Shown in pieces: positions 1-64,000 of a stretch of 64,000 bases of DNA. Source of the stretch: Mytilus galloprovincialis (Eukaryota; Mollusca; Bivalvia; Mytilida; Mytilidae). A program made the translations under genes and the position numbers. Within the stretch, counting starts at the first letter, position 1, and each line of letters opens with the position of its first letter. The notes below the pieces were generated by a model, which saw only the letters and a list, made by a program, of their open reading frames with translations, made no database searches and was not told the origin of the DNA. Location: contig NC_134841.1 in the NCBI RefSeq assembly GCF_965363235.1, positions 37,539,440-37,603,439 on the forward strand. Reading direction: 5' to 3'.

Positions 1-654
1 TTGGGCGGAAAGTGCGCGAAAGGACACCCCAGTTCAAACACATCATGAAATTAACAATGCCCTTCATCAGAAATGGTTGCTGCTACCTTAGCTACAAATT
101 AGTCGATTTATGGCAGGAATCAGAAGACGTTAAGATGCGATTATCCGTTTGAATGGAGGCTGCGCACAAAGTACTAATTCTTTGACATATAACGATGAAC
201 CATGATGTGAACAGTCATCATTGGATTAATTTTGAAATGTCTGACATTGTAAAGTTCGACTACAGTAAAAGTTGTAAAATGCATTTTTTTGTACAAAAAA
301 ACACTTCATTTTGTAATTAAAATTGTGGTTATATAAATCATTTTCTTTTCAAACAATTTTTGTTCGTTTCAATGCCAATGTTATCATAAACTATGTTTCA
401 ATAATATTATACACATATTTTATGATATTTCATCCAAAAAAAGAGGCCGATTTTTCAAGTTTTAACAAATCAAGGTGTTGCAATACTTTTTTCCATGTGT
501 ATATATATTCCTTTCTTTTAATATATTTTTATTTATGTTTATAATAGTCTACGTAACTGTTAGCTGTAATAGTGGTTAATAATAGATATGAGGTCCGAGT
601 ACACAGTAATTGTCCCTTGATTTTCGTTTTCGTTGTTCACGAATATAGTTCCTA
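1..654. other. Non-genic AT-rich sequence, nothing recognised
   Basis: No exon, RNA gene or terminal repeat could be recognised. The 73-codon open frame at 323-544 is phenylalanine/tyrosine-rich, has no recognisable motif and is most likely chance in AT-rich DNA. Confidence 0.6.
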
Positions 655-2361
655 GTGTGGACAATGTGTTACCACAGAACTGCTGACAGTATTTTCATAT
701 TAAAATCTTTAATTAATAAATATATACACAAAAATAACAAAAAAATATATGCATGCTTCATTGACTTAAGAAAGGCATTTGACTCTGTATGGAGGACAGC
801 CCTTCTGTATAAATTATGCAAAATGGGAGTAGGAAAGTCTTTTTACAGAGTAATAAAACAACAATATTTAAATACAAAATCCTCTTTAAAACATAAAGAT
901 CACATTTCTGACTATTTTGACATTACTAGAGGTGTGAAACAAGGGGATTCATTAAGTCCTACTTTGTTCAATATTTTTATAAATGATATCACTAAAGGTT
1001 TGGAAGATGACAACTCAAGTCCACTGGAGCTTATAAATAGTAAACTAGGCTCCCTCCTGTTTGCTGATGATCTGCTTTTACTATCAGAATCTAAGGAGGG
1101 TCTCCAAAATAGTCTAAATAAAGTTTCCATGTTTTGTGAAAACTGGCAGCTTTCTCTAAACATAAATAAAACAAAAAGTATGGTCTTTTCAACAACAAAG
1201 CAAAAACCTGAAACATCTATACTTGTATATAAAAACAAAAAAATAGAGAATGTTTCAGAATATCCTTACTTGGGTCTGCTGATTAAATCAAATGGTAATC
1301 TTAGTCATAGTACAGCTGAATTAACAAAAAAGGCAAAAAAGGTTTTGTTCTCTATTAAAACATATACTAATTCTCTTGGCAGCCTTCCTATCAGAGTGTC
1401 AAATAACTTATTTGACACCTTAGTGAGACCTATATTGACTTATAATTCTGAAATAACATATTTGGACTCATATATAACATATTTCAAAGCTAAAAAAAGA
1501 GCTTTGGTTTCTGGAAAAATTGTGGACCCATTTAATTTTATTGACAAGACTCCAATAGAAAACTTGCATCTTGGGTATTGCAAGTTTACCCTTGGCACTA
1601 ACAAGAGTGCCTCAAATTTTGGTACAAGGAACGAATTGGGAAGACTGCCTATTGAATGTCATATAAAAACCCAAACTATTATGTATTTAGCAAGGCTTTT
1701 CACCTCAAATTTGAATCCCTTATTACATGAATCTTTTCAATTAACTAAAACTTTGGATTCTAGTGGCACCTATTCATGGTTCACTTTTGCAAAAGATATT
1801 CTTTCTGAATCTAACATTGATATAGATAGACTAAAAACCTGTGATAATTTAAAACAATTAAAAAATATTAAAAGCTATATTAAACCCCAAATAAACTCGT
1901 ACTACAACAACCTGTTGATAAATAAGTTAACATCTATTGATGATAAAAGTAAATTAAATTTTTATAAAGCACTTGAGCCAAATCTATTGATCAAACCTTA
2001 CCTCTCTAACCCAAACTTTGAATTTAGAAAATTAATTACAAAACTTAGAATCAGTGACCATTCATTATTAATTGAAAAAGGGAGGCATTTTAAAATTCCT
2101 CGCGAAGAGAGACTTTGCAAAAAATGTAAAGTACTAGATGATGAGAAACATTTCCTAATAAATTGTTCTCATAATTCAAATATTAGATTAACATATTTTG
2201 ATTGCATTAATAGAGAAAGTAATTTATTTGCTAATCTCACTGACAATGACAAAGTTATATATATACTTAACCCATCAACACCAACACAAGTGAATAAACT
2301 AGGATCCTTTATAAAAAAGTCAATGGAACTGAGGACAGGGGACCCTTTAATATTTACCTGA
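655..2361 (+). CDS. LINE reverse transcriptase, C-terminal part of ORF2
   Basis: The 568-residue frame carries the palm motifs of a non-LTR reverse transcriptase in order: motif A as ACFIDLRKAFDSV (about residues 33-45), motif B as GVKQGDSLSPTLFNIF (about 93-108), the catalytic FADD motif followed by LLLLSES (about 136-146), the LNINKTKSMVF motif D (about 168-178) and a YLGLLI thumb motif (about 206-211). A CCHC-type knuckle, CKKC then H and C (about residues 496-512), lies near the C-terminus, as in many LINE ORF2 proteins. The first methionine is probably not the original start: homology appears to begin at HRTADSIF a few codons in, so upstream codons are flanking DNA. It would copy its own RNA at a nicked target, but the missing endonuclease means this copy cannot be autonomous. 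Confidence 0.9.
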   Translation: MWTMCYHRTADSIFILKSLINKYIHKNNKKIYACFIDLRKAFDSVWRTALLYKLCKMGVGKSFYRVIKQQYLNTKSSLKHKDHISDYFDITRGVKQGDSLSPTLFNIFINDITKGLEDDNSSPLELINSKLGSLLFADDLLLLSESKEGLQNSLNKVSMFCENWQLSLNINKTKSMVFSTTKQKPETSILVYKNKKIENVSEYPYLGLLIKSNGNLSHSTAELTKKAKKVLFSIKTYTNSLGSLPIRVSNNLFDTLVRPILTYNSEITYLDSYITYFKAKKRALVSGKIVDPFNFIDKTPIENLHLGYCKFTLGTNKSASNFGTRNELGRLPIECHIKTQTIMYLARLFTSNLNPLLHESFQLTKTLDSSGTYSWFTFAKDILSESNIDIDRLKTCDNLKQLKNIKSYIKPQINSYYNNLLINKLTSIDDKSKLNFYKALEPNLLIKPYLSNPNFEFRKLITKLRISDHSLLIEKGRHFKIPREERLCKKCKVLDDEKHFLINCSHNSNIRLTYFDCINRESNLFANLTDNDKVIYILNPSTPTQVNKLGSFIKKSMELRTGDPLIFT

Positions 2362-21400: not shown

Positions 21401-24400
21401 ACTATTGATAATAAGAACGTGCATGCATGTGTACGGTAACTAAAATGACCTTCAAACTGGACACTGGACGAGTCAATATTATGTTTTATCAATGAAAGTT
21501 AAGGTATGAAAGGTAAGAATTGCCACTTCTTCTATTTTCACCAAATTTTCCGACTACACAGTTGATAGATTATTTTTTAAAAGCCTATTGTGGAGATAAA
21601 AGAGAAAGTTTACAAATAAGACGTGTTGTTCCATTAAACAAGTCATTTTCTTAAGAGAAATGCCGAAATATATTTTACGCACAGCTACGGCAGGTAAAGT
21701 TATTATTTATCATAACAAAAAAAAGCATTATTCAGTCTCATTGGAATATGTTAATTACAATAACTCCCAAACTTAAGTAGTATGTATATGAAGTCAAAAT
21801 ATGTCCGATCTGCCTATTTTTGGACATCAAAAGTCGATACGATCGTTTTAAAGTCAATTTCGTCTACCTCACAAAATCTTGATAGGCACTATAGAGTGAC
21901 CAGTAGCACTTTTTCAAATAAATAATATAATAAATTTATATTATTTATTTATTTTCAGATTTGTTGACCATAAGTATGCGGTAACCAGTACCAGCTGAGA
22001 ATGTTCGGTGTATTTACACAAAAACATTGATTTCATTATACATATACGAATAATAAAATGATCATGTGCACTTGTCTCTGCAAGTGGCGTCTCCCAAGTG
22101 AGAGTTTGTGGTTATTTGATAAATATTTTATATTCGTTTGAGTTTACGAATTAGAATTTAATGTGGAATATTTTCTTATTGTCTACTTAGTGTGAACTTG
22201 TGTTTCAGTTATGACCATTTATATATTATAACCAGTCATTTTCCTGTACTTACCCGTTTTTTTAAATTTGTATATACTTGTTATTGGTCAGTTCATTAGA
22301 CACGTTACGAAAAGGTATATTCTCGTCGCTGAGGTTGACAAATTACACTTTAAATTTGGGGACGGTGTCAAAACATTGATTATAGATAAAAATTAAATCA
22401 TGTGCGTCTTGGTGAATTCAAATCACATTTACGTAACATCCTAATATTATAACATTTGCTTTTGTGATATTGTTGACTATCATACGACTTGAAAGTTGTA
22501 CGCGTGCAATAGTGGGTGAGATAGAAAAAGGGGGGCTGAGAGTTATACAAGTTCATTCGATTCTAGATTGATTATATATACATAGTAAGCCAGTTAGATA
22601 ATAATTTTATTGTTGTATTACAGTTCCTGAAAAAGTTTAATGTATGGCTTTATTAATCCCACACAACGCTCTATTGTCTGATTGATTTCTTCTCTCGGGT
22701 GTCTCCATAAGCTTCCATTGACTCTGAAAGTTTTGAAGCGCCTTATATCGTGTTCGACATATACCCGCCACTATTATATAATCAAATTCATTTTTTTGAC
22801 ATTTTCTTCTTTCTGCTCGTCGTTTAGCTCTTAGTTGATGCCTTTTTCAAATCTAATCCTAGCCCCCTCCCTCTCCCTAAAAAAACCAACTGGTTAGTAC
22901 ACATCTATAAAAACACCATAATAATTATTTTAGGAAACCCCTAGCATTGTTAGCTTATATAGAGGAAAGACCCATCGGCCATCGGTGTTAATTTTCCTAA
23001 TGTCATTTTCTTATGAAACGGTGGGCGAATTTCAACCAAACTTTCCAGGAATTTGTAAAATGCAAAATATCTGCATAAGTGGTGTTAAGGTGTAAATGCA
23101 AAGTCATTATGTAATGCTTTTGAAACTCTGCGGGAATGTTCAACTGATGAGTAGTGAGTCATATTTTACACAAACCTCTTATCGTTCTAAACAGGCATTA
23201 CATATTTGCCACTGAACGTTATGCAACCAATAATCAATCAATCACAAACACCTTATAAAGAAAATACAAATTGAGCTGAAACTGTTTAAATTAAGACAAA
23301 GTTGGAAGGAAATAAAGGAAGAAAAGTCATGCCCTCGAAGCTATGTGACCGGGAGTATAAATTTTCTAAACTAGAATGCAACATGATTCGAGTTGCATTG
23401 TATAAAACTCATGTCTATGTGTTTTAAAACAGACCCCGTCAGATAAAAATTTAGGTGGCAAACAACTGGATCAAAATACATACACTTCTTTGTGTGCTTT
23501 TCATACCTATATAAAAATGACCGTTACATATATTCACGAGTCAGTGGCGGATCCAGAAATTTTCATAAGTGGGGGCTCACTGACTGACCTAAGAGGGGGC
23601 CCGCTCCAGTCACGCTTCAGTGATTCCCTATATAAGCAACCAAATTTTTTTTCCAAAAAGGGGGGAGGCCGGCCCCCCCTAAATCCGCCTCTGCGAGCAG
23701 GTAATTGTAAAGCAGATTATAATACTTAAGATTATTTGCAACTTCTATCAATTTTGCAAGGGCTCGCCCGAAATATTTACACACGCATGTACACCGTGTC
23801 TCCGTTGCATTTACATGACCACTCCTCCCCCTCCCCCCCCCCCCCCCCCAATCTTTTGCATTAGAGTATTAGAGTTTCTTAAAAATATTATGGAATTTAT
23901 TAATATCTTATATTTTTTATGGTAAAAATGTTTCTGAATATTCGTTCCATACGGCGGATTGCCTCCAAAAGTATCAATGCAGCTTTTAAAGAATATTCAA
24001 TGTATACACAGGTAATCTCTTTTGTGTTTCGACACAGTCCCCACATTTAAAGTGTAATTTGTCAACCTCAGCGTCGTGAATATACCTTTTCGTAACATGT
24101 CTATTAAGATTAAAACGAGGGAAAACTGAGACCCAATAATTAGTATAACCACTCACATGATTCTGGCTGTAAAGAGCTTAGTCGGTAACTTCTAATCATA
24201 TCTTAAGTTTGTTTGTTTATTTTTTATAAGAATTTGGTAATGATGGTATACAGATTATAGTTTTATATGTATAGCTTGTGGTCGCTTGAGAGCTTGCCAT
24301 ATAATTTTTTTTGTATATGACCACTGTGTATCATCGCCACCGGAAATTGGGTACTAACGAAGCGGAGAGAAATGGAAAAAAAATGTAAACAAGTTAAGAA

Positions 24401-27400
24401 TTCATTCAATTTAAAGCATTTCCACTCTTTTGATGAGGGTGCCGCTTAAGAAATGATTTTCTGATATATAATTCTTTAAATTATTAGGCCGATAAGTACA
24501 AAATTAATACAAGATTTTGTGCAATACTCCAAAACTTGCCACTTAGTACCGGAAAATTTCGATGTCGATCGTCCTCTGTCGCCCCATTCTCAAGATACTG
24601 AACTGTATTTCATTATTTTTCCAGACACGTTTTTAGATTATTATAGTGTGGTATCATATTTACTGAAATTTGTTGTCAAAAAGATGTATTTTAAAGAATA
24701 TAGACCATAAAAAATAAAGTCTAGGGTACGGCAACTTGCTCGTGTTGACAAATTTACTGTATGGCAACTTGTTTTCAGCTGTACGGCAACTTGCTAATTT
24801 TAGAATAGTTATTTACCGTCCTTTCAAAGAAAATAAAGTATTAAGTTCAAATATCTAAGGGGGGGGGGTACCCTTTTATATTAAACTGTTTTTGTCCTTT
24901 TCAAGGTTTTAATTTGTTTAAAACTGTTATTTGACTGATAAATTTTAAAAACTGTTAACTGTTTAATTGAAATTGAGATTCCTGTTATCTGTTACTTAAT
25001 ACTTAAAGTGTTCACTGTTTTTGACATTATTTTCTCTGTTAACTGATCTTAACTGTTATTTACAAGAATCACATTAAAATCTGCTGTCCATCTCTTTCTT
25101 TACGTTGCTTCCGCAAAGGAGTGACATAAACAGCATATATTTAACTGTACATGTCTTTAAAAAAATCTTTGAGTATAGTAAATCCTTGATAAAATTGAGA
25201 ATGGAAATGAGGAAAATGTCAAAGAAACAGAAGCCCGACCAAATAGAAGAAAAAACCCAACGCAACGAGAAAATTATGCACTGGGATGGGGTGTCAATTC
25301 ACAGATAGGAAAAACACTTTGAAATGACACTCATAATTTTTAAACACCCTCTTTCCCTTTCTTCCTAATAAATAAGGCTTACTATTTGAGTTATGCATGT
25401 GTATATTTATGGAAAGAGAATCGTCCATAGATTTGATTTCCAATAGTAATAATGGTGAAATATAATCTTTTTTTGTTTGTTTAACCATGGCAACAATCAG
25501 CATTTATTTGATACCAAATATTGCAAAATAGGGGGTTGAACATGTCACAAAGATCTCAACAATTTGGTCCAAAGGAAAATTTCAATCAATAAGAGTGATA
25601 CCTTTCCTGAAACCATAGACATATATTTATCAAAAGGTAAAAAAAATCATATGCATTTCTGCTGTTTTTTCCATAAAATTGAAAAGATCGAGCGTCAAAT
25701 CTTTGTTGAAAAACAATACAAAATTTCTAAATCTATGACGGTACGGATAGGAACGTATGGACGTTCAAACCGAAAAATGTCTTATAAAACATGCTAAAAA
25801 CAATCTAAGTGTTCATATAAACCCACTATGAAGGCTATATTATTATTCAACTATCTAAAAATCAATTCAATTGTACAAAAACTTTCATGCTTAGAAAATT
25901 CGCCATGGCTATAATGCGAGACTACACTTGTAACTGTGTATTGATAACTGTGTATTGATATACCTGAAGCTGTCTCCTAAGTGAGAAATCATTTAACTAC
26001 AAAAAGGGGGTAGAAGTTCAATGTTTGTTTCTTGAAACATATAAATGAACCAAAATTTAAAAAATGAAATAAATACAAGACTATATACAAATGTAGCAAA
26101 GGTTGCGGACTCAAGTTGGGTCATGCAGGTGCAACAAATGCGGCAGTGTTAAACATGTTTAGGGATATCTCATGCCCCTCTTTATACGTCTAACCAATGT
26201 AGTTATATCTGCCTTCTATTTGTAATGTACCCAAAACGTTAAAAGGAAAGGCCACTTCTTATCCAGCTAAAACTCTGGTCAGTCCTGTGATGAAAATAAT
26301 TCAGATGTATATGGAATGTTTGATAAGTTATATTGACCCAGAGTACCTGGACGGAATTGTGAAAAATAAATTACCTTTTCAATTTGCAATACGTAAAATA
26401 ACTGAACAGTGTGGCCTGGTAGACAAGGCAGAAAAATGAGGACTGTAAGGTTCTCAAATTGATGTCAAATTATCTAGTCTAAGACTTCAGAAATGTAAAG
26501 ATGAACCAAGGCTTTTTTTTTTTATATCAGATCAGAGTTCTTAATTGGGACTTGGAGATGAAAGAGCGCTTCAACTTGTGACACCTTACATGTTTTTTTT
26601 CTTATTTATACACTGGTTTTGATGATTTAAAATAAAAATCAGTAAACCTTCGTAATTCCTTTTAATAAAATCATGTAAGCAATGGGTCGCATGAATACCC
26701 TGACTGAGATGTAACCATAATTTATAAGAGCCCCCGCCATAAAAAAAAAATAATGTTCGCGCCCTATAGTATTCATTCATTCTATCTGGGTGTTACACTT
26801 TCCTACGTCATGACGATAACCCAAGTTTGCTACGACTGATGACATAAAACATTTACTAAACAATATACATAACCAGAAGAAGCCTCACTTTTGCTGTTTG
26901 AAGCATTTTCGATTATTCATGACATAGTCCTTTTTCTTGGAGTCAATCACTCCGTCTGCTTTTCCATCCGTTCAATTGTCTGGCCATGTGTCAATAAAAA
27001 AAAATATGGTACTTGCGTGTGTCTTCTGAAAATTAGTCAGCTTTATAAAAGATTCCTTATGGAGCTTGGCATTTCTGCGACTTTATACAGTGGTTTTCAA
27101 ACTTTTGAATACATTGAAGATATGCACTTGCCCTTTTCATTGCTTTTGGGTTCCTTTGGAAAAAAGGGTAAATTAAAGTTGCTGTTAACTCTTATCAGCA
27201 TTTAAAATTTGTTGTTAACTGTTTTTGCCAAAATCGGGGTGTTGTTAACATGTTAACGGACCCCTCCTCTTATCTAATTATGCATTAGATAAAATGCATT
27301 AGATATAAACACCATTTGCTTGACAGCATTTAAGATGTATACAAATGAAATTTTTCAAAAAGAAACTGACAAGAAAATTAATTCGAAATGCAATTCACGA

Positions 27401-30400
27401 TTTGTTTCTCCTTACTTTCGATGAAAACAAAGTCTTTTCTTAATTTTGTCTGTCCAAATTCTCGATCCTGTGGTTCGGTGGTTGTCGTTGCTTCATCTCT
27501 ATCTGATTTGTTGTTTTCATAAATTGTTTTGTTACACTGTATATGAGTTAGGCCGTTAGTTTTCTTGTTGAGTCCTTCCACATTTTTCTGTCGGTGCTTT
27601 TTATAGCCGACTATAAGGTACGAGTTTTCGTTTTTGAAGGCCGTACGATAGCATATAATTGCTTGCATACACTTTATTTTATCCTGATGGATAGTTATCT
27701 TATTTGCTATCATACCACATCTTCACTGTTTTTATCTATAAAAAAAAAAGCCAGCACCAACAACAGATGAATGGACGGTTTATTTTATTGAACTTACACA
27801 ATTTCAACCTAACAACAAATAAGACAACAGTCGTTAGTAGTATAACGATATATACATGTATTTAGGATAATATGGTTGAAAAAATCTTTTTGTACAAAAT
27901 CAAAAAGCGGTACGCAACGAGGCCTTCTGAACTGAATTAACGGCATATATTTAATAATATTTGATAAGTAAGACATTTGGTATATTTGTAAGCCTGTAAA
28001 GCTTTGATATCAACAAAATATCGTCACTTGATATTATCTAAACAGCGATTAATTTCCTCTTAAAATTATAATATATTGCAAGACGCCGTACAGACAAAAG
28101 TTGTTATTTTGCAATTCGCCGTACAACGTCCTGCAATTCGCCGTACAACAAACAAACAATGTTTATGTCCATATTCTTTAAAAAACATGTTTTTGACAAC
28201 AAATTTCAGTAAATATGATGCCACACTATAATAATCTAAAAACGTGTCTGGAAAAATAATGAAAAACAGTTCAGTATCTTGAGAATGGGGCGACAGAGGA
28301 TGATCGACCTCGAAATTTTCCGGTACTAAGTGGCAAGTTTTGGAGCATTGCACAAAATCTTGTATTAATTTTGTACTTATCGGCCTAATAATTTAAAGAA
28401 TTATATATCAGAAAATCATTTCTTAAGCGGCACCCTCATCACATGAGTGGAAATGCTTTAAATTGAATGAATTCTTAACTTGTTTACTTTTTTTTCTATT
28501 TCTCTCCGCTTCGTTAGTACCCAATTTCCGGTGGCGATGATACACAGTGATGACTGTCTATTGTTAAAGACTATACATGATGTGTACCTCTGTGTGTCTT
28601 TGTTTATTTGTATTGAGAGACAAAATCATACTGTAGGTACGAGAAATGAAATATAAAAGCAATATCTTACAAAAAACACTTTCAATATGTTCTCTGATCT
28701 CAGTTACTCAAAGCAAGCCGAAAGTACTTCATTCTAGCTGGTAATAACGGAATCGTGCTTTTCAATCAACTTTTGGAAGTTTTTATAGACTTGTAATTTT
28801 CTGGTTCTTCAGTACAGTAAATTCGTAATGCAATTGGATAAGGGATAGGTGTCTGAAAAAAGTCAGAAGATACTGTCAGAAGAAGTCATTTAAAGGTCCA
28901 AGAGAAACTGACAACGCTATGGCAGAAAACAAAAGACGGCAACAGATCACAAATAGACAATCAAGTCCACAAGACACAACATTAAAAACTAAACACTAAG
29001 AAACACGTACGAGCCCAACAAAAGAACGGGTGGTGATTAGAACATTCGATAATACCAGAAGGAGAGCTTAGTTCTAATACATGTGTTGGACTGCATGTAT
29101 TGTGTAATTAATATTTTCCACGGTCTAAGCCTGGCGAAGTATAACATAACAGAAGTGAATATATATAATTGTCGAAAAAAAAACACGAATATATTATTAT
29201 CATTAACCCCTGAAGAACGATATATATACATGTACATAAACTAGAATTTTAAAACAAAATCGTCTTGTATCTGTGTTAATTATTATGGTCGTATCTTCCA
29301 TAATTTGTCAAAGTGCTGTTTCTTTATGTTTTGGTAGTCTGAAATGTTTTGGATTTCACTTTCAATTACCAGATCTGATGATTACAGTTAATTTTGTTGA
29401 AATAAATTATGTCCTTAGTTGAGTCAGAACCCTCGTCAATGGCTGTCGTTTCTCATGTTTCGTTTTTTGGAAGAATTAAGAAAAATTAAGAGTAGAAAAA
29501 CGAAGCTTTGCTCAGCTTTGATAGTACATACTGAAAGAAAGATTGAAAGAATTTCAAAATGTTCCTATGAAATAAATTGGGGTATACATAAACTTTGACA
29601 AACTATGCACTCGCTAAAACTGCGTTCATCGTTTGTTAGTAAAAACGCTTCATTTGTTTCTAACTTCAACCTGATCAAAAGATGTATGTGTTTCAACGTT
29701 TGTGAAAAGTGTGTTTACCAACAACCTGTGCATGCATTATTGAAAGTGCAAACAGGGTCAGTAAAGACTTATCAAACGATGTATTTGTTTCTACTTTTGT
29801 AGCGTTTAGAAAACAACAACAAACGCCACACAACGTTTACAAAATTTTGGTTACAAAGAAATGCACTCTAAATATTGATAAAACCATATTGGACAAGGAA
29901 CATTCAACCTCATATAAAAAAAAACTGACAACGCCATAGCTAAAAAGTCAAGACAAACTGAAGAACAACAATACACGAAACACCAAAAAGCATGTTTGCT
30001 GTCTGCAATATGCATAAAAAGAGACTTTGAATATATGCCATTGAATAATCAGACTAAATATACAGTCAGTACCGATGGTAATTAATAAAATTCTAGTTTT
30101 CAAATTTCGATTTTAGATTTCATAAAATTATAAAAAGATACATGTACCTATGGAATAGTTCTACATAATATTCTAATGAGATTTAACCAAAAATATAATT
30201 TTATTTTTTGCTTTGAATTATTGAAAGCACATCATTTTATAATAATGTAGAATAATTGACATTCAACCTGTTAAATAATGCATGACATTTGTTACAATTT
30301 TCCCTCTGCAAAAGATACATTCCAAGTTATCGGTAAATGGACTCGTTTTTCTTGGACAATAAATGGTTTGAAAATTCACATTTTAAAAAACGCAATTTCG

Positions 30401-56375: not shown

Positions 56376-57513
56376 AGGTAAACTAATGTAACACTGTTCA
56401 ATAGTACCAACTGTACATTTTTAAAAATTAATAACATTTACATCAATTTTTCATACTTGTTTTGATATCTTGAATACAGAATAGTCACTTATAACAAAAT
56501 CGAGTTCAAACACTGTAATAACAGCCATTATATAGTTACGTATTTTAAAATTCAATCCTCACTATATACCGTAAGCTGTTAGAAACAAAAGAGGTATGCT
56601 TTTTTTTCCTTCTGCATTTGTTTAACTCTCATTGCCGAGAGTCTCACTCAATTGGTATACACGTATGTGCCGCTGGAATGGGTCCCCTTTAGGATATGTT
56701 AATGGGTTGCATGTTCATCAAGGTAAAATGTCAATGCATTAGTCAGTAATTTTCGTCTTTTGATTATATATCTGTATCCATACTGTTTTGTCAAACAATT
56801 TTACATTATTTTTATCCATAAAATCTGTTCGTCATTTGTTATTCGGTGTAGTAAACTGTTGCCGGAATCAATTTTTAACATAATTTTGAAAAACATGTTT
56901 CAACATAAAAATCATAAGAAAAAACGACCTATTTCGTATAAGAAAAATAATACAAAGATTAATTATGATAATTTTTGTATTTTTGTATTCTAAGAATGAA
57001 AATGTCCTTCCGTAAACATCATTTTATGAAATATTGAAGTTATTCTATATTTGACAAAATCTATCAGATTCGCTGTTTGAAACCAAGAGTACCGTCACTA
57101 CGTATTTCTAATAACGTTTGCACGTTCGGAAAACGCCATTATACCATGATAATGTTGCTATAACCGGAAAGAGAGACAGATTTATATAAGTTTTTTCCAA
57201 ACTTGTTTCCGAATCCCATATTTGCACTTAATGTAACACTGTAATATGTTATCTTGTAATTTTTCATTAATATTAAATCAAATACTAGAAATTCACGCTA
57301 TAAAACTGTTAAATTTAATAGAGACAGAAATTCAAAAGTATCTACGATCAGTTATTGCCATGGTTTTAAACATATTCAACGGAAATTGATTTTGCATCTT
57401 AATTCCTATTACCCAAACACTTTTCAATGTTTCTTCGTGGAAGTGCTGTAACTATTGACAAACACGTGCTATTACTATTAACCTACACGTGCTGTTACTA
57501 TTAACCAACAAGT

Positions 57514-57907
57514 ATGAGGCGCCGTTTTACTATTTAATACTTATTTGCTGATATCAAAAAATGATTTTCTGATATCAAAAATTCTATTTTTTGATATCAG
57601 GAATTCGATTTCTTGATATCAAGAAATAAAGCATATTTTCTGATATCAAAAATTCGAATTCCTGATATCAAAAATTCATTTCTTGATATCAGAAATTCGA
57701 ATTTTTGATATCAGAAAATATAAATTATTTTTTGATATCAAGAAATAGATTTTCTGATATCAAAAAATGATTTTGTGATATAAAAAAAATCGAATTTCTG
57801 ATATCAAAAAATCATTTTCTGATATCAGAAAATAAGAAATAAATGAATAAATGAAGGCTCCCTGTGCGTCAATAAAAGCATTCAAACTCAGCAATGAGCC
57901 CAAACAT
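57514..57907 (+). mobile_element. Element carrying an array of TGATATCA palindromes, plus copy
   Basis: The left edge is TGAGGCGCCGTTTTACTATT. The core (57550-57835) holds 12 GATATC sites, nearly all as TGATATCA, about every 20-30 bp, separated by AAAAATTCGAATT- or AAAAATGATTTT-like spacers, plus one GATATA variant. The right edge contains GGCTCCCTGTGCGTCAATAA and CAATGAGCCCAAACAT. The same edges occur in inverted order at 61120-61572, which defines this as a mobile unit, not a simple satellite. Confidence 0.75.
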
Positions 57908-57963
57908 CAGGAAATATGTGAAATAATGTTTCCGGGTATACCAAATATTATGGGGTCCTACTA

Positions 57964-58645
57964 AAAAGCGCCCGGGTGCACCCGGGTGAAGAAAAAGCGC
58001 CTGGGGAAAGAAAAAACGTTAGATATCAAAAGACATGTTTTTCAAAAACGATATCAAAATGATAAATCCCAAAACAACTTAAAATTCACAGATAAATATA
58101 ATTTTTATAAAATTAAAAGAGTTGCACATTATTTAAGAACGATAGAAGTGACACGTACATGTATATCAGCATCAGCAAATAAAACAATTATACCATGCAT
58201 GTTAAAAGCAGGTGTTTGGTATAAAACAAATTCTTAGTGACAGGCATGTTGAATCCCTTCCACGATCTTCCAATGTCAATTCAAGTGTGTTTAATAAAAT
58301 ACAAAACTTTGAAAAGTTGTCACCATGCAGTTGCGAATATTAGACTCGGGCACTGATTTTTTTTTTAATAACGAAACATTCGTTTTGATCGAGGACAATG
58401 TCATTTATGATTTTTCTATTTCCTCTTGTTTATATTTACGGCTTACTTACTTATATACAATTTTGAAATCTAAAATGTAAAAGTGCAACAACACTATCTT
58501 CACTCTTTAGACAAAACAAGCAATGATTTTTATTTTTTTTTATTCAGGAAAACATTTATTGTTATAAAATATTATTATTTTCTTCTCCCGAGCGCTTTAT
58601 TTTCTTCCCCGGGCGCTATTTCTTTTTCTCCGGGCGATATTTGTC
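57964..58645. mobile_element. Element with GC-rich GCGCCCGGG inverted subterminal repeats
   Basis: The left end holds AAAAGCGCCCGGGTGCACCC and AAAAAGCGCCTGGGGAAAG. The right end (58585-58640) holds inverted equivalents CCCGAGCGCTTTATTTTC, TTCCCCGGGCGCTATTTC and CTCCGGGCGATATTTG. About 680 bp with a lysine-rich 83-codon frame (57986-58237) beginning inside the left repeat; it has no recognised motif. The GC-rich ends stand out sharply from the AT-rich context. Confidence 0.6.
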
Positions 58646-58649
58646 ATTT

Positions 58650-59585
58650 TAATTATGGCAAAGGGTCCATTGTTACAAAAACAAAATGCTTATACATTTC
58701 AAGTTTTATAAAGATGATTTAGACTTAAAAAGTCTCAAGAAAACTTAACAATATTTGAAACTAAGTACACAATTCGAGTCCGATGCACAACAAGACAATA
58801 TATTGAAGATATTTGAAATTATAATGAAATATAACACAGTATTTACTTTTGCGACGAACAATCCCAATCGAAAGAATTAGTCGACCTTAGAATTAACTAA
58901 ATACTGGAAAATGTTTAACAAAACTTGACTTATCGAAAACAAATAATGATGTGTTCAAGATTTAGATACGATGGCTTGATGATATTATATTCAGGTTCAA
59001 CTGACGTAATACACGATCTTTTCGCCTTATATATCTAATGCAATGCATGTACCTACCTAAATTGAACATACGAATTGTGCCATTCTTGACTGTCGTGTAA
59101 TACAAATTTGAAAGACCAACGCTTTCAAAATAAAGGTATTTTAGAAATTTTACATACATTTTTCAATACTTCACAGTAAAGGCTCATATAAAATAAATGT
59201 AACTTAAAGGATATATAATTGCATTGCATGTATGTTTCATTTATATGATATGTTATTTTGAATGGCTAACAGCAATCTCGCGTCCTTCTGAAATTAACTT
59301 TCATTACACAATGAAATGTAACATTCGTGATGACCCGAACTCCCACAATAAAGTGCACATGTAAATTAAAGAAAAACTTGACAGAAATCGTGTTTTTATT
59401 ATCCTAGCTAAAATGTGATTATAATATCGAATGCTTCTTTTTGTAATTCGTAGGGTTGTAAAAGCTTTGACCGTGCGCACATTTTTAGAAGGAAGGGCTT
59501 CCGCACTGCATACACAATGTACTTCGGTCAACGCTTTTATACCCCAATGAATTTATAAAAAGGAGCATTCAATTCTTAAATACAA
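58650..59585. other. Intergenic, no gene recognised
   Basis: Short minus-strand frames at 58962-59159 and 59304-59531 lack motifs and splice context; no repeat partner was noticed. Confidence 0.45.
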
Positions 59586-59588
59586 GGC

Positions 59589-59736
59589 CATAGGCGGATT
59601 TAGATGGCCCAGTCACACATATCATGGCAAGAATTTGGTTGTTTATAATTGGGAATCACTGAAGCATTACTGTAGTGGGCCCTTTTTATGGCAGTCAGTG
59701 GGGCCCCTATTTTAAAACGTTCTCGATCCGCCACTG
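59589..59736 (-). mobile_element. hAT-like MITE (CAGTGGCGGATCC family), copy 3
   Basis: In reverse orientation the ends read CAGTGGCGGATCGAG and, at the other side, CATAGGCGGATTTAG, and the interior keeps the CAGTGATTCCC/TATAA/ACCAAATTC order. A perfect 5-bp duplication AAGGC flanks it (59584-59588 and 59737-59741). Confidence 0.85.
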
Positions 59737-59999
59737 AAGGCGCAGTATAATAGATGCTATAGCAGTCTTTAAAAAAATATGTCACGTAAATAGACGAAAT
59801 ATTTTAAAATACAAGAAATGTTTGTTGCTATTGGCTTTGAGCTAGCTGTAAGAAGGTGAGAATGCTTTCCCATCTGTATTTTTTTTCTTCTTGGTATTGT
59901 TCTACTGCCACGTCCAGTCTGTGTTTTTTTGTCAGCTATTTTTGTTCGTTGTATCGATCTGATGAATAAAGACCATTTTTACTGATTTTTATATATAAA

Positions 60000-60475
60000 A
60001 AAAGAAGATTTAGTATGATGAGACAACTCTCCACAAGAGATCAAATAACATAGCAATTAACCACTATAGGCCACTGTACAGCCTTCAACAATTAGCAAAT
60101 CCCATTCTGCATAGACAGCTATATAAGGCCCCGAAATGACAATGCAAAACAATTTAAACGAGAAAACTAACGGCCTAATTTATGAGAAAAAAAATGAACG
60201 AAAAACAGATATGTTACACATACACAAACGACAACCACTGAATTACAAGATCCTGACTTGGGACAAGCACATACATACAGAATAGTGGTGGTGTTAAATA
60301 TGTCAGTGGAATCCCAACCCTCCCCTAACCTAGGATAAGGGTGTAACAGTACAACATAAGAACGAACTATAAAAATCCGTTGATAAAGGCTTAATTCATC
60401 AGATGAATACAAGTACAAATACTGCACAGAGTGGACGTGGCCAGATACTTCTATATTCAATCAACAAAAAGACAA
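60000..60475 (-). repeat. Interspersed repeat family A, long reverse copy
   Basis: It is collinear with 20175-20640 (GAGACAACTCTCCACAAGAG, AAGGCCCCGAAATGAC, GAGAAAACTAACGGCCTAAT, CAGAGTGGACGTGGCC). The 97-codon minus frame at 60167-60460 arises from it. Confidence 0.7.
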
Positions 60476-60569
60476 TAATATTCAGTTTGCTTTGAATTTA
60501 CCGATAACTAAATCAATATTAATACTAATAAAAACATAAATTGTTTGTTCTTACAGTATGTTATGACAA

Positions 60570-60815
60570 AACACCAGTGTCTGTCCCACGTAAGAAGCCT
60601 GTAAGGATATACAATTGTCGTTAGCTTTCTTAATAAATATTTTCATATTTTTCATGCCGGGACATTTTATAGCCCACTTTACGGTATTGGGTTTTCTCAT
60701 TATTAAAGGGCGAACGATTGCCTATAATTTCTTATATCCACTTCATTTCATTTGGCTTTGGTGGATAGTTGTCTCAATGGCAATAACACCACATCTCCTG
60801 ATTTTTATATACTAA
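60570..60815 (+). repeat. Interspersed repeat family A, adjacent opposite copy
   Basis: GTGTCTGTCCCACGTAAGAA, TATAGCCCACTTTACGGTA and GTGGATAGTTGTCTCAATGG correspond to family A in plus orientation. With the neighbouring reverse copy it forms a divergent pair about 95 bp apart. Confidence 0.65.
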
Positions 60816-61119
60816 ACAGAACTAATTGACTTACTAAATTCGCAACATCATCAACTGGAAAAAACCCTAAAAAAACGATATTACCAAATACTTGAGCTTA
60901 AATTCACAAAAACCTAGTTGAACAAATCTGTTTCAGAGGAAACTAACAATTGCGTATAAAAGAAACTGGAACGTACAATTGTTTTTCAATGAAGAAATAC
61001 AATTGTTGACTATAAACCTTAAAAAAAATAATGTGTGAGATACACAATCATACAAAATTTCTTAGAACTAATGAAGCCAAACTCTGTAATATTCTTTCCT
61101 TAAACAAGACCGAAACACT

Positions 61120-61572
61120 ATACCAAATGTTAGGGCTCATGGGTGAGCTCGGAAGCTTTTATTGATACACAGAGGGCAATCATTGATATTTTTCTGATTT
61201 TCTGATATCAAAAAATCATTTCTTGATATCAGGAATTCAAATTTTTGATATCAAAAAATCATTTTCTGATATCAAAAAATGTATTTCTTGATATCAAAAA
61301 ATGATTTTCTGATATAAAAAAAATCGAATTATTGATATCAAGAAATAAAGATTATTTTCTGATATCAAGAAATCGAATTTCTGATATCAAAAAATGAATT
61401 TCTTGATATAAAAAAAATTGAATTCCTGATATCAAGAAATATTTTTTGATATCAAAAAATATTTTCTGATATCAGAAATTCAATTATTTGATATCAGAAA
61501 TTCTATTTTTTGCTATCAAGAAATATTTTTTGATATCAGAAAATAAGGAATAAATAGTAAAACGGCGCCTCA
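61120..61572 (-). mobile_element. Element carrying an array of TGATATCA palindromes, minus copy
   Basis: The right edge ATAGTAAAACGGCGCCTCA is the reverse complement of the left edge at 57514. The left edge holds GTTAGGGCTCATGGGTGAGC and CTTTTATTGATACACAGAGG, the counterpart of the other edge. The core (61200-61545) holds 13 GATATC sites plus two GATATA and one GCTATC variants. Order and number of units differ from the other copy, so the array evolves by unit gain and loss. Confidence 0.75.
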
Positions 61573-61574
61573 TA

Positions 61575-62580
61575 AACAAGTACTGTAACTATCAACCAAC
61601 AATTGTAGTAACTCAGTCTCTTGACCGAGGAATATCATGTAAGCAAAATCAAATTGTTAATTTTATGCAATGTTTCCTGTCATTAATTCCCAAACTTCCA
61701 TACGGTTTATACATTATGGAAACTGGTGTATCGTCTCAGTGTACACTACTCATCCTATGTCTGGGACTGGCTTGATATATGTCAATTTAATAATTTTATA
61801 ATAAACATTGTAGTGTGAACTCATTTTGCAGCACTAGCCTGATATATCACAAAAACAATCCTACACTTAGTATTTTCTGCATCTTTTTACCAATAAGTTT
61901 TAAATTCTTCAAAATCTGAAAATAATATTGCTTTGACGATAAAAATATTACTTTTTCTATTAAAGTTGTAAATAATTGATATATTTTTTCCAAATTGCTT
62001 TAATTAAACTCCAACACTATTATCGTCATGGAAGTTTGAGTTTCTATTCAATTTTGTTTACACACTGATCAAATACATTAGATTTTCTGGTTTCATGGAA
62101 TACTTCAGGATGTTAGGCATGATAATCAATAAATGTTCATTGATCAAGTGATATATGTTTAAATTGCATGTTACAATTTGTTTTGCTTGTCGTCTGCTGA
62201 AGAAACATATTAATTGGTAAAAACTTTAAACTCCGATTATTTATTTCCATATTTGGTTGTGTGAATAACACTTAAGCAAAGCAAAATAAAGTTACCCCCT
62301 ATAACTTATGTGTCCTATTAATAAGTCTAATTATGCTTAATTTGAATTAATTATTTACGTTATAATTATCTGTTGCTGTTCAGTTTCTTTTCAAAAGTAC
62401 GCATGTGCAGAGCCGCTGTCCTCTTGGAATAACTAGACTTACGTCAAAGACTATCGCACGAAGATTTTTCTAAGAATCGATTGCCATTATTGAACATACG
62501 GATGCTGTAAAATTAACTAAATTGTTGTTTTAGAATGACCAAGAAATAATGTAGAAATAAAGCTGTAAATTGGAAAATTA
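61575..62580. other. Intergenic, no gene recognised
   Basis: AT-rich sequence with no repeat partner or exon signature noticed. Confidence 0.45.
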
Positions 62581-63964: not shown

Positions 63965-64000
63965 TAACCCTAACCCTAACCCTAACCCTAACCCTAACCC
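63965..64000 (-). repeat. Telomere-type repeat (TAACCC)6 at the window edge
   Basis: Six perfect TAACCC units run to the last base, so the array may continue beyond the window. On the plus strand the orientation is CCCTAA, the reverse of what a right-hand chromosome end shows, so this is either an interstitial array or the edge of an inverted telomeric block. Confidence 0.95.

What the first reader, a model, noticed from the sequence alone, without database searches (positions are those of the whole stretch)
57514..61572. Two inverted elements built from arrays of the palindrome TGATATCA
12 and 13 GATATC sites in about 290 and 350 bp, separated by short AT spacers of varying length, lie between conserved element edges (TGAGGCGCCGTTTTACTATT and CAATAAAAGC-like) that recur in inverted orientation 3.6 kb away. 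Each unit is itself a palindrome, unit number and order differ, yet the 8-bp core is strongly kept, which suggests selection on a protein-binding or structural role or a replication mechanism.
Basis: partly seen in the sequence, partly recalled or inferred. Interest (0 to 1): 0.75.

Follow-up and report, generated by a model that had tools for sequence, protein, structure and literature searches.

The report
Transposon ends with palindrome arrays
The two "inverted elements" are the two ends of one 4-kb jumping gene, and their rows of TGATATCA look like a landing strip for the enzyme that moves it; sister families keep the same layout but use a different palindrome.

Summary
Window 57513-61574 is one 4,062-bp non-autonomous DNA transposon: termini TATGAGG...CCTCATA and a perfect 6-bp target duplication (AACAAG). 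Both arrays lie inside its ~400-bp terminal inverted repeats. The genome holds 33 exact edges; 28 form 14 inward-facing pairs. Of 16 pairs examined, 14 have perfect 6-bp duplications. One paired copy spans 47,976 bp and encodes an integrase-like transposase (Pfam rva_4) with three candidate catalytic acidic residues. TA..TA termini, 6-bp duplications and this enzyme fit the IS3EU/GingerRoot superfamily. Each unit is a 20-bp palindrome, AWTTYY-TGATATCA-RRAAWT. Between the 48-kb element and the window family, cores differ by 0-2% and spacers by 37-50%. Steps of 20-22 and ~27 bp recur. A 49%-identical sister transposase sits beside an array of TTAATATTAA, and a third group of ends carries AGATATCT, with the first palindrome centred 38-40 bp from the tip in nearly all ends read. 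I conclude that the arrays are transposase-binding (synapsis) sites whose sequence changes by lineage; binding is inferred. Helitron and host-homeodomain readings are not supported. A HECT ubiquitin-ligase fragment is linked to these transposases (8 of 12 non-self hits within 30 kb).

The parts
57507..57512 (.). left copy of the 6-bp target site duplication AACAAG
57513..61574 (.). complete non-autonomous IS3EU/GingerRoot-like transposon, 4062 bp; no stop-to-stop ORF of 110 aa or more inside
   Evidence: interior 92.5-96.5% identical over 2.6-3.2 kb to 5 other paired copies (L010, L018, L023, L025, L026), less to the others
57513..57534 (+). left terminus TATGAGGCGCCGTTTTACTATT
57549..57827 (+). 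left subterminal array, 12 exact TGATATCA palindromes, steps 21-23 and 27 bp when one-mismatch cores are counted
57513..57908 (+). left terminal inverted repeat, including the inner CAATAAAAGC...ATGAGCCC segment (inner limit approximate)
57909..61128 (.). interior without a long open frame; includes fragments of dispersed repeats
61129..61574 (-). right terminal inverted repeat (inner limit approximate)
61203..61538 (-). right subterminal array, 13 exact TGATATCA palindromes
61553..61574 (-). right terminus, inverted copy of the left one
61575..61580 (.). right copy of the target site duplication AACAAG; joining the flanks continues a 23-bp tandem repeat (right-flank unit 83% identical to the unit before it)

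Best explanation
The feature is one non-autonomous DNA transposon of the IS3EU/GingerRoot superfamily. Shown: inverted repeats with TA..TA tips, 6-bp target duplications, a 48-kb relative with the same tips and arrays that encodes a DDE integrase-like transposase, near-invariant palindrome cores with a recurring spacing, and a different palindrome in sister families. Inferred: the transposase, or a helix-turn-helix protein made by the element, binds each 20-bp palindrome as a dimer. Dimers line up along one face of the DNA at about two-turn steps, with a ~27-bp step every few sites. The two loaded ends pair, the enzyme cuts at the TA tips and inserts with a 6-bp stagger. The many weak AT-rich sites supply the specificity that one short palindrome could not. 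Copies such as the window's are moved in trans by proteins of elements like the 48-kb one.
For: Pairs of exact edges, all inward-facing, 2.6-48 kb apart. Perfect 6-bp duplications in 14 of 16 pairs, 1 with one mismatch, 1 (a 222-bp copy) with three; flanks paired across different copies never come closer than 2 mismatches in 240 pairings. The empty site is restored in a tandem repeat. The 47,976-bp copy has duplications GTTAAG/GTTAAG and rva_4 split over two exons: model positions 2-22 at E=4.6e-6 with WHVD, and 19-193 at E=4e-79 with a second D and an E. Core/spacer contrast: core 0-2.9%, outer arms 6.7-12.9%, degenerate pair 32-50%, spacers 34-64% divergent in 10 comparisons. The exact 12-step series 22,22,27,22,21,22,22,27,22,21,22,21 stands in 13 of 34 ends of the window type, at the left end of the 48-kb element and, with one 26 for 27, at its right end. 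A sister transposase, 49% identical, lies beside a TTAATATTAA array at the same 40-bp offset. 314 generalised tips against 0 reversed-pattern controls. IS3EU described as having TA..TA termini and usually 6-bp duplications (PMC10045372, passages).
Against: No binding was measured. The helix-turn-helix assignment is weak (HTH_11 E=0.017, below its cut-off). Window and 48-kb elements share tips and array type but not interiors, so trans-mobilisation is inferred. 21 of 34 ends, both of the window's among them, depart from the exact spacing series by lost, added or shifted units. The autonomous partner of the AGATATCT group was not found. The 72-kb pair of ends around the sister transposase has no matching duplication. 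Array units could partly be conserved by conversion between units.
Confidence: 0.78

Rival explanations
1. The arrays are primarily promoters or insulators bound by a host factor (for example a homeodomain protein); the element keeps them to express its genes.
For: In the 48-kb element and the sister element, reading frames begin just inside the arrays; dense identical sites resemble regulatory clusters.
Against: Copies without long frames keep the arrays at both ends, and the palindrome differs between sister families while the geometry is kept; a shared host factor would not predict that. On contig C1 the triple-core hits fall at three loci, two of them these elements; the third was not read (which lists 100 rows).
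Confidence: 0.12
2. Neutral satellite-like expansion: slippage or foldback copying made the arrays and conversion keeps them alike, without function.
For: Unit number varies between copies (5 to 19 per end, 26 in a 728-bp copy), a ~114-bp higher-order period exists, and one AGATATCT element consists almost wholly of array (48 units).
Against: Neutral conversion would homogenise spacers too, yet spacers are 34-64% divergent and cores 0-3%. Positions +-7, 8 and 10, which were not used to find the units, are 89-100% conserved while +-11 to 13 are 31-60%. Arms of a unit do not covary.
Confidence: 0.07
3. Polinton/Maverick-derived element (also 6-bp duplications and long inverted repeats, as recalled).
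For: 6-bp duplications, integrase, 48-kb size.
Against: No DNA polymerase B match inside C7:41714809-41762784 among the 125 matches listed (83 of 195 candidates scored); tips are TA..TA; the integrase is rva_4 at 4e-79 and matches rve only below its cut-off.
Confidence: 0.03

Closest known systems
[quoted passage not shown]
   Same: TA..TA tips, 6-bp target duplications, integrase-like DDE transposase; fungal IS3EU tips TAYGG..CCRTA (PMC12730594, passages) match TATGG of the sister families
   Different: Long inverted repeats filled with palindrome arrays, a 48-kb copy and linkage to a HECT domain are not mentioned in the passages I saw
Galileo / Foldback-like elements of Drosophila (PMC3688188, passages)
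   Same: Long, internally repetitive inverted repeats containing several transposase-binding sites shown by footprinting and gel shift
   Different: P-element-related THAP transposase; three sites described, far apart, not phased palindromes
CACTA/EnSpm elements with TNPA-bound subterminal repeats (PMC2613891, passages)
   Same: Reiterated subterminal motifs bound by an element protein; motif differs between families while tips are conserved; a 20.5-kb element
   Different: 3-base duplication, different transposase, motifs not described in those passages as phased palindromes
Helentron-carried satellite arrays in oyster (PMC7492417, search listing and start of abstract only)
   Same: Short tandem arrays spread by a mobile element in a bivalve
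   Different: Rolling-circle elements; here there are inverted repeats and target duplications

Membership tests
IS3EU/GingerRoot | TA..TA termini | tested here: met
   TATGAGG...CCTCATA; the TA outside the 20-bp edge is placed by the duplications
IS3EU/GingerRoot | 6-bp target site duplications | tested here: met
   14 of 16 window-type pairs perfect; 9 of 12 TTAATATTAA-type pairs examined perfect, 1 with one mismatch, 1 with two, 1 without match; 3 of 3 AGATATCT-type pairs match at 5 of 6 positions, none perfectly
IS3EU/GingerRoot | DDE integrase-like transposase, not Polinton or retroviral | tested here: met
   rva_4 in the 48-kb copy with D, D and E present; that rva_4 is the IS3EU enzyme is inference. 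The window copy itself has no such frame
IS3EU/GingerRoot | transposase groups with reference IS3EU sequences in a tree | not testable with these tools
   Repbase sequences are not held
Helitron/Helentron | no inverted repeats at the tips, no target duplication (recalled) | tested here: not met
Polinton/Maverick | protein-primed DNA polymerase B (recalled) | tested here: not met
   none in the 48-kb copy among 125 listed genome matches; the first look was not exhaustive
Tc1/mariner | TA target duplication (recalled) | tested here: not met
   6-bp duplications of varying sequence outside the TA tips

The most novel reading that the evidence does not exclude
A clade of IS3EU transposons in this genome has a modular end code: the tip and the geometry (first site 38-40 bp in, steps of ~21 and ~27 bp) are fixed while the palindrome itself is swapped between lineages together with the transposase. 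This makes mutually deaf families, and lets very long elements (12.6-48 kb with perfect duplications) still be recognised. The clade also carries a HECT ubiquitin ligase as a conserved accessory gene, perhaps acting on host repair or repressor proteins.
Probability: 0.4. Interest if true: 0.72.

Novelty: new variant of a known kind. Interest (0 to 1): 0.5.

Why it matters
It turns an odd AT-rich repeat into a readable recognition code. Three groups with related tips carry three different palindromes at the same geometry, so how transposase specificity changes during family splitting can be tested by swapping sites and proteins. It also suggests how large DNA transposons could keep efficient end recognition, and gives a clean cis signature (tip plus phased palindromes) for finding members without a coding frame.

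Tried and rejected
Exact edge in viral contigs and in prokaryote genome contigs: 0 and 0. Rfam: 0 families; ARAGORN: 0 tRNAs. PADLOC on the transposase: 0. Solved structures: only weak hits, best an integrase at E=0.067. Literature on rva_4 by name: none of the 20 titles listed of 58 deals with the domain. The 72-kb pair of TTAATATTAA ends around the sister transposase: flanks AAAAAT and CAAGTC do not match, so it is not claimed as one insertion. The C17orf113-type zinc finger in the 48-kb copy: by eye, none of its 70 other hits lies within 100 kb of a transposase hit, so it is treated as an unrelated passenger. Exact-palindrome arrays around the 414- and 424-aa transposase families: none in the two 7-kb loci read (L045, L046); but L046 has a 21-bp tandem array with ten GTGNNCAC sites at exact 21-bp steps, an imperfect palindrome, which I did not follow up. 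A left end near the 440-aa family was not found in 3.2 kb. The 12.9-kb copy is long because a retroelement with gag-pol-like frames, Ty3-like by my reading and not searched against a library, sits in it.
Full report
WHAT IS THERE. The window holds 12 exact TGATATCA sites at 57549-57827 and 13 at 61203-61538, far above chance (28 in the window, 2.4 expected, 0 of 100 shuffles), and one exact edge TGAGGCGCCGTTTTACTATT outside each array in opposite orientation. The window's own genome (1.385 Gb in 331 contigs; window = C4:37539440-37603439) could be searched. I think it is a bivalve mollusc, perhaps a mussel; this rests on recalled repeat motifs and on the 13 contigs of 73-133 Mb whose lengths I saw, and no call names it.

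ONE ELEMENT, NOT TWO. The edge occurs 33 times exactly in the genome. 28 of these form 14 pairs with a plus copy followed by a minus copy 2.6-48 kb away, and 5 have no exact partner (one of the 5 has a 2-mismatch partner). I cut out all 14 exact pairs plus two with 1-2 mismatches. Outside TA...TA, 14 of 16 have identical 6-bp flanks, one has one mismatch, and a 222-bp copy has three. Flanks taken from different copies never came nearer than two mismatches (240 pairings). The window element is 57513-61574 with AACAAG on both sides. Joining its flanks restores a 23-bp tandem repeat: the unit at the start of the right flank is 83% identical to the one before it.

NON-AUTONOMOUS COPY AND A CODING RELATIVE. 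The window copy has no open frame of 110 aa or more. Its interior is shared with other paired copies (for example 94.5% over 3.2 kb with L026; 84-86% over 1.1 kb with L009, L011, L024 and C8). One pair on C7 spans 47,976 bp without N and has flanks GTTAAG/GTTAAG. It encodes the integrase core rva_4 (PF24764, E=4e-79, model 19-193). The start of the domain, with an aspartate in WHVDGHMK, lies on an upstream exon (model 2-22, E=4.6e-6). A second aspartate (RSDHGGEN) and a glutamate (NQRIERLWRD) are in the main exon; naming these three as catalytic is from general knowledge of such enzymes. Exon limits are my reading of open frames, no transcript was seen. A further exon shows only weak helix-turn-helix similarity (E=0.017, below cut-off). 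Apart from the inverted repeats, this element shares only three short stretches with the window element, so moving the window type in trans is an inference.

THE ARRAYS. 518 units from the ends of the window type and the 48-kb element (two loci, L013 and L027, left out of this count) give A W T T Y Y T G A T A T C A R R A A W T. Core positions are 94-100% conserved, +-7, 8 and 10 are 89-100%, +-9 63-83%, +-5 and 6 57-74%, and +-11 to 13 31-60% (all units and the 48-kb element alone). The units were found by their core, so the fair contrast is between positions outside it. Aligning homologous arrays gives core divergence 0-2.9%, outer arms 6.7-12.9%, the degenerate pair 32-50% and spacers 34-64%, over 10 comparisons (each column is counted once per sequence label, and labels need a core with at most one mismatch). 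Among 80 distinct 20-mers the two arms do not covary (z between -2.1 and 0.2), which speaks against hairpin copying and for a consensus read by a symmetric protein. Genome-wide, three TGATATCA in a row at such steps match 324 times forward and 319 reverse, against 23 and 23 for the reversed control pattern; I did not check that all of them lie in these elements.

GEOMETRY. Steps between cores are 20-22 bp (407 of 489 steps of up to 60 bp) or 26-28 bp (64 of 489). The exact 12-step series 22,22,27,22,21,22,22,27,22,21,22,21 is found in 13 of 34 ends of the window type, among them left and right arrays of one copy (L015, L018, L022), and not in the two ends of the window copy, which have lost or shifted units. 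The 48-kb element has it at its left end and with a 26 in place of one 27 at its right end. The first core is centred 40 bp from the tip in 33 of 34 ends and in both ends of the 48-kb element. 21 bp is two helical turns and 27 about two and a half. Whether this is function or a relic of a ~114-bp higher-order repeat cannot be told.

SISTER FAMILIES SWITCH THE PALINDROME. A transposase 49% identical to that of the 48-kb element (C11:67987460; rva_4 E=2.6e-79) has, about 7.7 kb upstream on its strand, a tip TATGGCAAGCCGTTGTGGAATTTATTC followed by a ~21-bp array of TTAATATTAA, here interrupted by another insertion. A generalised tip pattern that excludes the exact window type has 314 matches, and its reversed control has 0 (100 rows listed). 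I read 12 ends or short elements from it or: 8 of AGATATCT type, some decayed, 3 of TTAATATTAA type, 1 with a tip but no array, and further TTAATATTAA ends. The first palindrome centre is at 40 bp in 15 of 17 TTAATATTAA ends with a located centre, and at 38-39 bp in 11 of 11 AGATATCT ends. Steps of ~21 and 26-28 bp recur in all three. 9 of 12 TTAATATTAA-type pairs examined have perfect 6-bp duplications, including three of 12.6, 13.9 and 19.2 kb; one has one mismatch, one two, and the 72-kb pair around the sister transposase none. The three AGATATCT pairs match at 5 of 6. The autonomous partner of the AGATATCT type remains unknown. So the link between palindrome and transposase rests on two transposases, each beside its own array.

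CLASSIFICATION. PMC10045372 (passages) says that complete IS3EU families always have TA..TA termini and usually 6-bp duplications, and that GingerRoot joins them. PMC12730594 (passages) gives fungal IS3EU tips TAYGG..CCRTA. All features I could test are met. A tree against reference IS3EU proteins was not possible. Polinton is unlikely (no DNA polymerase B among listed matches in the 48-kb copy), and Helitron and Tc1/mariner are excluded by the duplications.

MECHANISM. Best reading: cooperative binding of a dimeric element protein along the array, synapsis of two loaded ends, cutting at the TA tips and insertion with a 6-bp stagger. Precedents: footprinted and gel-shifted binding sites in the repetitive inverted repeats of Galileo (PMC3688188, passages), and TNPA binding to subterminal repeats in CACTA elements, whose motifs also diverge between families (PMC2613891, passages). 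Binding has not been measured here.

HECT LINK. The 48-kb copy has the C-terminal part of a HECT ubiquitin ligase on the opposite strand (E=1e-9). Of its 12 other genome hits, 8 lie within 30 kb of a transposase hit: 0.5, 3 and 27 kb, and five at ~7 kb that are probably copies of one family. The other 4 are 0.87-5.4 Mb away (the script compared 59 of the 148 transposase rows, and I checked the remaining rows of C10 and C11 by eye). HECT identity next to the C9 transposase was confirmed (E=2e-9). This suggests an accessory gene, but I have not shown that it lies inside the inverted repeats other than in the 48-kb copy. In one literature search asking for at least 4 of the terms HECT, DNA transposon, ubiquitin, transposase and IS3EU, neither of the two listed titles deals with such a link. 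Searches for IS3EU with subterminal or palindromic repeats, and for Mytilus satellites with palindromes or inverted repeats, listed no paper that, by its listing, describes these arrays (10 of 25 and 12 of 28 listed). That is not proof that none exists, and Repbase was not available.

Noticed in passing
window 63965-64000, continuing in L028 from about 965: (TAACCC)7 ends about 6 bases past the window and is followed by a reading frame with integrase-like text (YEQYDADLMDV...STDAGTEFKN, read by eye, not searched); an interior site of C4 (37.6 of 104.9 Mb), so not a chromosome end but probably the tip of another integrase-bearing element.
   Followed up: partly
L046 605-821 (C12 near 27653100): 21-bp tandem array, ten GTGNNCAC sites at exact 21-bp steps, about 3 kb from a transposase of the 424-aa rva_4 family: perhaps a fourth, imperfect palindrome of the same kind.
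   Followed up: partly
G000 C3:95786297/95799069, C10:3153190/3166161, C11:65001755/65014745, C7:51844609/51857913, C1:105984479/105997443, C11:27453763/27466774, C3:9676783/9689923, C7:45159976/45172662: rva_4 relatives (about 35% identity) in inverted pairs ~13 kb apart in eight places: possibly elements whose transposase gene lies in both long inverted repeats.
   Followed up: no
L029-L033 (C7:41714809-41762784): 47,976-bp element with perfect duplications: transposase frames from the left end, zinc-finger and HECT pieces on the opposite strand.
   Followed up: partly
L047 (C1:1621934-1623063): 1.1-kb element that consists almost entirely of AGATATCT array (48 units), end to end.
   Followed up: no
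window 649-2361: reverse transcriptase frame, RVT_1 E=8e-28, likely a LINE.
   Followed up: no
window 24377-24705 and 28167-28495: 329-nt inverted repeat, 97% complementary, 3.5 kb apart: probably the ends of another DNA transposon.
   Followed up: no
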